From: Tubiluchus corallicola
Lineage: Eukaryota > Priapulida > Priapulimorpha > Priapulimorphida > Tubiluchidae
Direction: 5' to 3'
DNA: 64,000 bases
Assembly (NCBI GenBank): GCA_030141605.1
Contig: JAQGDQ010000204.1
Coordinates: 331,806-395,805 of the forward strand
Shown here one piece after another: positions 18,201 to 21,200 of this stretch. Made by a program: the position numbers and the translations under genes. Below the pieces are notes generated by a model that saw only the letters and a program-made list of their open reading frames with translations, made no database searches and was not told the origin of the DNA. Position 1 is the stretch's first letter, and each line of letters starts with the position of its first letter.

Positions 18201-21200
18201 ACCAATAACAGCCTGAAAATGCAGCGTAGAATAAGGTACTCCAATGGTTGAATTCTTCCCTCAGGTCTCCCACATATTTCAGAAAGCAAAGATTGCAAGA
18301 CAAGGTGCTGTGTGACATTAGCTATGAAACATAAAATGTTACAAATTTTGAATTGGCATTTTCAAGTTTTTAAGTTCGAGTTGGCTGATTGTTTCACAAA
18401 TTATGACTGGATTGTATAGCTTATCCACATTTCTGCTGATCACCATGCATTTGAAAAACACTTGAGGCATTCCAACGTTGAAAAACAAGCAAAATTCAAC
18501 TTTTTATAATATTTATTTAATGTAACACACTTTTAAAAAGCCAATTTTATACTTCAGATGTTCCCAACTCTTCTATGCTAAATTATCTGTTTCTGCCATT
18601 AACTGAAACAGGGGCTGATGTGCAGTTATATTAACTTCCATGATTATTGTTTTGTTAGTTTGACTCTGATAACACATGATCAGTGATTACCTTTAATGAC
18701 AATTAACGGCGTGGTCAGTATTTTGTTTTATTTATCCATTGCAGTCCTATTTTAAGAGCCTTTTTTTCACTATTATTGCTTTTGAAATAAAGATGGGTTT
18801 ATGTGATAGCAATTCAAACCTACAGGACAAACTAGTCTTTAAACAGACTCTAGAGCCATACATGTCTTCCTTGGTCTCTTATTAACAATAGTTATAAAGA
18901 CCATTAGATATTAGTAAAAGTTAAATGCTAATCACAATAATCGGCAGTTTTGCTTGCATTAATGGAGGACAGTACTATAGATAATTTTATAGCATATCTT
19001 TCTAGAATGCATAAATTAAATGTCACATTTTCATATATTCTGTATATATTGCTGCTGGCTAACATTTCGGTAACGCATAATAATGTTCAATTCTTCTTAA
19101 CCTTTGTAAAATTATGTCTTGAAAGATTGTCAGTATTGCTCCAGCTAGTATTTCTGTAATCCTGTGCAATCAATAGTTAATCAGTCTGACGTCAAGCTTT
19201 TTGCTAATGTCACAGTAAATGAAAAGCTAATCATGCTGTCACTGGGTCGTTAATAAGTAGGTGCATTACAGTTATCTGATATGTGTACTCATTTCCACGT
19301 ATATTACTGAATAAGAGATACAGGTAAATTAATTAGTTAGATTAGTTCTTATTCGTGTAGCTTGGGCAGATAGAAACTTGCTAATAAATGTATCAACCAG
19401 GGCACCTTTCCAGCAACTGATTATTTATCGACCAACAAACGGTTCTTAAGGGTTGTACTTACACAGTGCAGTGTGTAGAATAGTTTGGAATTGTAGTACA
19501 GGTCAGCTTAGAAAACCATTGGAAACCTTGGTTGTTAGATATAGTTGTCTTTGCTGGCTATGATTGTAATATTCTTAGTTTTATATCTCTAGCAACCTAA
19601 TTTTTTTCATAATGATGACTGGCCATGTAAACCTTTCCCTGTACTTCATGTAGTCACACTTACAGAACGGATTCTTCTACAATTACCTTAATTATCAATT
19701 TTAGACATAAAGACTGTTTTGTACATTTAATACGTACATTTCTGCAGGTTTATAAATCAACTTAGTTTGGACTTGTTACATATGTAGATCTATGTTCAGT
19801 ATTCAAAATGATGTTCAAAGTTTAATCCAGCTGTTTCACTGGTACAAACTAATTCACAAAAGTTCCTTTTGTTTTGTAGTGTAATAGCGGGCTCGGTATG
19901 TTTTTGTCAGTATTTAGTTAGTTCTGATACAAAGCACATTTGCTACATGTGTCATAGAGGATCATAAGTATCAGTACGGAGGCCAGTTTTTCTATCATTA
20001 AGTACTAAAATTCTGTTTCAGGATGCAAGAAAAGCAGCTTGTGATACCTCGCTCACCGCTGCCACAGCAAATATGGACCAAGTCGGTCGGATACAAATGC
20101 GTACTCGACGCACACTTAGAGGACATCTTGCCAAGATATATGCCATGCATTGGGGTTCAGATTCACGGTAACAACAGTTTTACAAACTAATACTAACAGC
20201 TTTAAGTTACTAGCTTGAAAAGTTTTACGTACAGTACTTCAGTGTAATCATAACATTAAGCAGCTGACTGTACAGATTTTCTTAGTCCATTTGACTAGTT
20301 CTGTATATTAGCTTCTTTCCTTTTCACTTAGCAATATTGTTTGACTGAATAAATGCTCTAATGTCCTTTCCTTGCCCTTTACACAGCAATTGCTGCAAAC
20401 AATGTTGCAAAATTCTCTTATTAAGTGATGATACAATCTGGTTTGTTAGTACGTCATGTAATATTTTACCTTGTTGTGATTGATAATTTATGCAATTTAC
20501 ATGCACCTCCGAAGGTGTGTTCGCTATTTAGCAATACAGTGGTTCTTCTGTAAATCCTCTGGAATATCGGAGGATATTTATAATTATTAACAAAACTGAA
20601 TACTTATTTTTCACTCATAATTAAAGAATGTATGACTGTACTGCGCATGGCAAGCTATGTCTGCATTGATGTAATCTGCCTAAAGAAAATGCTTTTTTAT
20701 TTACAGAAATTTAGTATCAGCTTCACAGGATGGTAAATTAATAGTGTGGGATTCGTATTCGGGCAATAAGGTGAGCGAGTGTGTGTGCGCGTATTTGTCA
20801 GCTATGTCTATGTGTTTGCTTTTCGTTTCAGGTATTTGGTATCAGCATCACAAGATGGTAAATTAATAGTGTGGGATGTAATAACAACTAACAAGGTAAG
20901 CGTGCGGTGAAGCCTTACTAATACTGTTTCCATTAACATTCGTCGGTTTTTGTTGTGTGTGATGCTAACAGCGTTGTCTGCATGTACAGCAACAGTATGT
21001 TTAGAATAGTTTATGTTAGATTAGAGGATGGTAAATATTTGTGGTGCAGGATCCCATTATAGACCGGCCATTAATCTTCTCCAAGCAGGACAGGTGGCCG
21101 TGCTGGAAGAGCCTGAGCCGATTAGTATTTGGAGCATGTGCTGCATGCCCAAGAATTTTTATTTCCCTGCGAAAACCAGCTACCCTATTAAGTTTGTTTG

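What the first reader, a model, noticed from the sequence alone, without database searches (positions are those of the whole stretch)
20707..20895. Tandem, mutually exclusive exon 3a/3b in a G-beta gene
Two adjacent 64-nt exons have the same phase, intact splice sites and no stops. Both encode the end of WD blade 1 of G-beta but differ at five residues: the residue after Arg69 (N/Y) and four residues (S-Y-S-G versus V-I-T-T) immediately before the conserved N-K. That N-K corresponds to human Asn88-Lys89, at the contact with the G-alpha N-terminal helix. G-beta is among the most conserved signalling proteins, so a gene-encoded switch at this surface is striking. I do not recall a firm precedent and make no novelty claim without a literature search.
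Basis: partly seen in the sequence, partly recalled or inferred. Interest (0 to 1): 0.82.

Follow-up and report, generated by a model that had tools for sequence, protein, structure and literature searches.

The report
Twice-switchable G-protein beta gene
An animal gene for the G-protein beta subunit, one of the most conserved signalling proteins, carries two interchangeable copies of an internal exon and also two interchangeable last exons, so by sequence it could make four full-length versions that differ on neighbouring surfaces of the protein; no RNA was available to show that all four are made.

Summary
Exons 3a (20707-20770) and 3b (20832-20895) are both 64 nt, have the same phase, canonical splice sites and no stops. 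They encode the same blade-1 segment with five residue differences. The pair is single copy in the 343-Mb assembly. Skipping both, joining both, or retaining the 61-nt intron between them each gives an early stop, so only a one-or-the-other choice yields a G-beta.

The terminal exon is also duplicated (9a 36100-36206, 9b 36863-36969), giving four open 341-aa G-betas. The 9a/9b pair is old: synonymous sites are saturated, dN is about 0.11, and 9a is protein-identical to the single last exon of a paralogous G-beta gene. Both copies have therefore been kept by selection. For 3a/3b the case is weaker: the body is 41/46 identical, the four switched codons differ at 11 of 12 nt, and the flanking introns are mostly unalignable, but no RNA or related genome was available.

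Best explanation: mutually exclusive exon 3 plus alternative last exons in a canonical G-beta. This kind of splicing is known and has published precedents in G-alpha. I found no G-beta precedent in the open-access library. The change in G-alpha or effector binding is inferred.

The parts
12215..12274 (+). Exon 1 coding part ([20 protein letters not shown]), G-beta N-terminal helix
   Evidence: ATG and donor gtaagt
20022..20167 (+). Exon 2, constitutive; ends inside the Arg codon (human R68)
20707..20770 (+). Exon 3a, 64 nt, [21 protein letters not shown]
20771..20831 (+). 61-nt intron between 3a and 3b, shortest of about 18 introns measured here
20832..20895 (+). Exon 3b, 64 nt, [21 protein letters not shown]
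20950..20961 (+). CELF/UNC-75-like motif TTGTTGTGTGTG, 55 nt after exon 3b; a lead only
   Evidence: only exact match to the pattern in the window
20979..20984 (+). RBFOX-type TGCATG after exon 3b; a lead only, since this hexamer is common in the window
30254..30332 (+). Exon 4, constitutive
30541..30691 (+). Exon 5, constitutive
31088..31217 (+). Exon 6, constitutive
32275..32346 (+). Exon 7, constitutive
33226..33442 (+). Exon 8, constitutive
36100..36206 (+). Exon 9a, alternative last exon ([34 protein letters not shown], stop); AATAAA at 36722
36863..36969 (+). Exon 9b, alternative last exon ([34 protein letters not shown], stop); AATAAA at 38241

Best explanation
This is a canonical 341-aa G-protein beta gene (Gbeta1-4 type) with two places where one of two homologous exons is used. 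Exon 3 exists as a tandem pair, 3a/3b. Splicing takes one or the other, because joining or skipping both breaks the frame, and because the 61-nt intron between them probably leaves too little room between the 3a donor and the 3b branch point. The terminal exon exists as 9a/9b, two alternative last exons, with a polyadenylation signal lying between them. The two choices give up to four G-betas that differ at human positions 69, 84-87 (end of blade 1, beside the G-alpha N-helix and effector surface) and at 309, 322, 325, 327, 337 (blade 7, the neighbouring blade). The likely result is cell-type-specific tuning of G-alpha or effector affinity without changing the core contact residues. Shown: the exons, frames, splice signals, early stops in the other combinations, and long-term conservation of 9a/9b. 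Inferred: exclusive use, steric enforcement, tissue specificity and biochemical effect.
For: Coordinates, phases and splice sites. Donors of 3a and 3b match consensus 8/9 each, as good as or better than the constitutive exons. All four combinations are open at 341 aa. Both-in stops at codon 100, skip-both at 81, retained intron at 122. Two of the combinations (3a+9a and 3b+9b), together covering all four alternative exons, score 705 and 709 bits to WD40_Gbeta over the whole length. Intron flanks of 3a/3b are largely unalignable (downstream no better than shuffles; upstream near threshold, p about 0.03-0.05), while the exon bodies are 41/46 identical. 9a/9b: synonymous differences at 92% of sites but dN about 0.11; 9a is protein-identical to the last exon of the C2030 paralog, whose synonymous sites are also saturated. 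Length, phase and homology match the published prediction criteria for mutually exclusive exons (PMC3228551; PMC5740500), and a donor-to-branch-point distance under 50 nt is a recognised enforcement mechanism (PMC5740500; PMC7969005).
Against: No RNA evidence, and no related animal genome could be searched. On the 3b branch the changes are mostly nonsynonymous (N to Y, SY to VI), so selection on 3b alone is not demonstrated; a young exon-only copy could still look intact. If the duplicated unit was little more than the exon, the dissimilar flanks say nothing about age. The 61-nt intron may be spliceable in this species. Residues that directly contact G-alpha are unchanged.
Confidence: 0.8

Rival explanations
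1. Exon 3b (or 3a) is a young tandem copy that is not used, or used only as a trace or poison exon; a single working exon 3 makes all the protein, and the 9a/9b choice is the only real switch.
For: On the 3b branch the inferred changes are mostly nonsynonymous and no purifying signal is shown for 3b alone. The paralog has only one exon 3 and carries a decayed partial exon-6 copy, so useless exon copies do arise in these genes.
Against: 3b keeps the frame, all residues of the human 70-83 stretch that 3a has, and splice sites as good as those of 3a. Its T-T-N codons match the paralog, and each copy has changed a different half of the tail.
Confidence: 0.15
2. Both exons are used, but the pair serves mainly to control the amount of G-beta: joined or skipped forms with early stops are degraded, and the residue changes matter little.
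For: Both-in and skip-both forms stop at codons 100 and 81, as expected for decay targets.
Against: The switched codons differ at 11 of 12 nt against 4 of 45 in the body (Fisher p 8e-8), which a purely quantitative device would not need; the 61-nt intron should hinder joining.
Confidence: 0.1
3. Assembly or haplotype artefact: the two exon 3 copies are alleles or a collapsed repeat.
For: None found; the species and the assembly method are not known.
Against: The pair is single copy in the assembly, the copies differ at 16 of 63 bases, they lie 61 nt apart on one gapless stretch, and each has its own flanks.
Confidence: 0.02

Closest known systems
Mutually exclusive duplicated exons in G-alpha genes (GNAO exon 7/8 pair; GNAQ/GNA11 exon 4.1/4.2; preGNAI exon 6 and preGNAQ exon 5 in lancelets), PMC5896119
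   Same: Heterotrimeric G-protein subunit; tandem homologous exons; the switched segment lies at G-beta-gamma, receptor or effector interfaces; independent local duplications in different lineages
   Different: Those are in the alpha subunit; here it is in the beta subunit, with two switch points in one gene, one internal and one terminal
Tandem mutually exclusive exons in general (WebScipio class, PMC3228551; human set, PMC5740500; OGDH 4a/4b, PMC7969005)
   Same: Equal length and phase, homology, frame incompatibility, short intervening intron
   Different: A search for GNB in the main text of the human survey (PMC5740500) found no occurrence; supplementary tables were not checked; no transcript evidence yet here
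C. elegans unc-32 exon 7a/7b under UNC-75 (CELF) and RBFOX (PMC3585155)
   Same: An exon pair with a UUGUUGUGU-type stretch and a UGCAUG in nearby introns; here both motifs lie just downstream of exon 3b
   Different: There the UNC-75 site lies in intron 7a, between the exons, and function was tested; here there are only motif matches at a different position and no binding data
Known G-beta splice variants: Gbeta3s (GNB3 C825T; PMC6952978, PMC4849471) and long/short Gbeta5 (from general knowledge)
   Same: Alternative G-beta proteins from one gene
   Different: Gbeta3s loses 41 residues and Gbeta5 varies at the N-terminus; neither is a choice between homologous exons
Human GNB1 exon 6 (PMC8504539)
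   Same: Apparently the same exon: its listed variants run to Lys89 and the next exon begins at c.268; it holds 49% of the listed pathogenic missense cases
   Different: Treated there as one exon; here duplicated, with hotspot positions 73-80 the same in both copies

Membership tests
Canonical G-protein beta subunit (Gbeta1-4 type) | Full-length WD40_Gbeta match with N-terminal helix and seven blades | tested here: met
   PF25391 3-341 of 341, 705-709 bits, cut-off 150; a query of nearly this sequence (first 165 residues) aligns end to end with human Gbeta1 of solved structures
Tandem mutually exclusive exons | Neighbouring internal exons of the same or similar length | tested here: met
   64 nt and 64 nt, 61 nt apart
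Tandem mutually exclusive exons | Conserved splice sites and reading frame, no in-frame stop | tested here: met
   AG/GT on both, phase 2 in and phase 0 out on both
Tandem mutually exclusive exons | Sequence homology of the two exons | tested here: met
   41/46 nt over the body, 16/21 residues
Tandem mutually exclusive exons | Every transcript carries exactly one of the exons | not testable with these tools
   No RNA data; only that the alternatives frameshift
Alternative last exons | Two homologous terminal exons, each with acceptor, stop codon and a following poly(A) signal | tested here: met
   9a and 9b; AATAAA at 36722 and 38241
Alternative last exons | Both kept by selection | tested here: met
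   Saturated synonymous sites with dN about 0.11; 9a protein-identical to the paralog's last exon
Alternative last exons | Both used in transcripts | not testable with these tools
   No RNA data
CELF/RBFOX-regulated exon pair | Functional binding sites controlling the choice | tested here: inconclusive
   Motifs present; the RBFOX hexamer is common in the window (29 on the + strand); no binding data

The most novel reading that the evidence does not exclude
A G-beta gene with two coordinated splice switches on neighbouring blades (1 and 7) makes four cell-type-specific G-betas whose combination sets partner preference. Both switched exons carry segments reported to matter for SNARE binding (W82, K89; V307, L308, H311, R314), so the gene could tune presynaptic inhibition or G-alpha choice by splicing.
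Probability: 0.25. Interest if true: 0.8.

Novelty: new member of a known kind. Interest (0 to 1): 0.55.

Why it matters
G-beta is usually regarded as the invariant partner of G-protein signalling, with diversity supplied by gene copies and by G-gamma. A gene that swaps short segments of two neighbouring blades while sparing the core contacts would be a natural mutagenesis experiment on which parts of the G-beta surface can be tuned. The exon concerned appears to be the counterpart of human GNB1 exon 6, where 49% of the listed pathogenic missense cases fall (PMC8504539).

Tried and rejected
Taxon: the telomere pattern is TTAGGG, so probably neither an arthropod nor a nematode. A schistosome spliced-leader pattern recalled from memory gave nothing. 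RNA structure: 20640-20990 folds less well than shuffles (z +3.2), giving no support for a strong local structure holding the choice; long-range docking was not tested. Third exon-3 copy at 20970-21074: score 38 against a null 99th percentile of 40, not significant. Second copy in the C2030 paralog: none found for exon 3 or exon 9. Rfam on the window: none. Structure prediction was not attempted because spliced proteins are not contiguous window translations, which that tool requires. Paper searches for G-beta mutually exclusive exons found no precedent in the open-access library, which is not proof of absence; genome-database gene models of this or related species could not be checked. My first attempts at exon ends were off by one and were corrected.

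Full report
Check of the observation. The window holds a complete G-beta coding gene on the + strand: exon 1 12215-12274, 2 20022-20167, 3a 20707-20770, 3b 20832-20895, 4 30254-30332, 5 30541-30691, 6 31088-31217, 7 32275-32346, 8 33226-33442, 9a 36100-36206, 9b 36863-36969. They encode [21 protein letters not shown] and [21 protein letters not shown]. The pair is found once in the 343,548,820-base assembly.

More than chance. The bodies of the two exons are 41/46 identical, reached by none of 500 shuffles, while the intron flanks are largely unalignable: the downstream flank is no better than shuffles and the upstream flank is near the threshold, p about 0.03-0.05. The four switched codons differ at 11 of 12 nucleotides against 4 of 45 in the body (Fisher p 8e-8). 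Compared with the single exon 3 of the C2030 paralog (SYTT), 3a keeps S-Y and 3b keeps T-T with the same codons, so each copy changed a different half. This is either diversifying change at one surface with the body held constant (by selection or by conversion between copies), or a multi-base mutation in each copy. The data do not decide between these.

What was missed. The terminal exon is duplicated too. Exons 9a and 9b both begin at a cag acceptor, encode the end of blade 7 and stop after VWN; an AATAAA lies between them (36722) and another at 38241. They differ at human positions 309, 322, 325, 327 and 337. By the Nei-Gojobori count, synonymous differences are 0.92 of sites, saturated, while dN is 0.11. 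The paralogous G-beta gene on C2030 has one last exon whose protein is identical to 9a although its synonymous sites are saturated against 9a. The simplest reading is that 9a/9b arose before the two genes split and the paralog lost 9b. Two copies that old, both intact, must both be under selection. With the two exon pairs the gene can encode four open 341-aa proteins; 3a+9a and 3b+9b, which together cover all four alternative exons, match Pfam WD40_Gbeta end to end.

How it most likely works. A transcript with both exon 3 copies stops at codon 100, one with neither at codon 81, and one retaining the intron between them at codon 122, so only exactly-one gives a G-beta. The intron between them is 61 nt, the shortest of about 18 introns measured here (next about 108 nt). 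If the branch point lies at a usual distance from the 3b acceptor, it is under 50 nt from the 3a donor, the proposed steric limit (PMC5740500; PMC7969005); that is inference, since some animals splice introns of this size. A local RNA structure is not supported. Downstream of 3b lie TTGTTGTGTGTG (20950, the only exact match to the pattern in the window) and TGCATG (20979), resembling the UNC-75/CELF and RBFOX sites that govern the unc-32 exon 7 choice in C. elegans neurons (PMC3585155). This is a lead only: the layout differs and TGCATG is common in the window.

What the switch could change. [quoted passage not shown] All these residues are the same in both copies; the switched residues lie beside them. 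So the switch should tune rather than abolish contacts. The exon apparently corresponds to human GNB1 exon 6, a disease hotspot. That N88 and K89 contact the G-alpha N-helix, and the placing of the segments on blades 1 and 7, are from general knowledge of the heterotrimer structures.

Known or new. Mutually exclusive tandem exons are a known kind, and G-alpha genes have several, at G-beta-gamma, receptor and effector interfaces (PMC5896119). I found no report for G-beta in the open-access papers; the known G-beta variants are deletions or N-terminal changes (and general knowledge). Gene models of this or related species in public databases could not be checked, so prior annotation as isoforms is possible. 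I file it as a new member of a known kind.

Limits. No RNA, no related animal genomes, species unnamed (TTAGGG telomeres). Support is strong for the anatomy and for 9a/9b being real, moderate for 3b being used, and only inferential for function.

Noticed in passing
window 36100-36206 and 36863-36969: Duplicated terminal exon of the same G-beta gene, apparently older than the 3a/3b pair by divergence, both copies conserved; treated as part of the finding.
   Followed up: yes
L023 (C2030 about 62880-62970): The paralogous G-beta gene has a decayed partial copy of its exon 6 just upstream of the intact one (acceptor CAG reads CAA), so tandem exon duplication seems recurrent in these genes.
   Followed up: partly
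window 20970-21074: Possible degenerate third copy of exon 3 with its upstream flank; alignment score just below the null 99th percentile.
   Followed up: partly
window 15326-17583, - strand: Broken remains of a non-LTR retrotransposon (reverse transcriptase match PF00078 at 15701-16315) in the first intron of the G-beta gene.
   Followed up: no
window 48127-52801, - strand: Exons of a sugar transporter gene (PF00083) downstream on the opposite strand.
   Followed up: no
window 62483-63748, + strand: Open frames that look like parts of another LINE-like element at the window's end; no Pfam match at 0.001.
   Followed up: no
G000:C138:126584-127651: An apparently intronless full-length G-alpha gene (Pfam positions 2-333 without a stop), possibly a retrocopy, in the same genome.
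   Followed up: no
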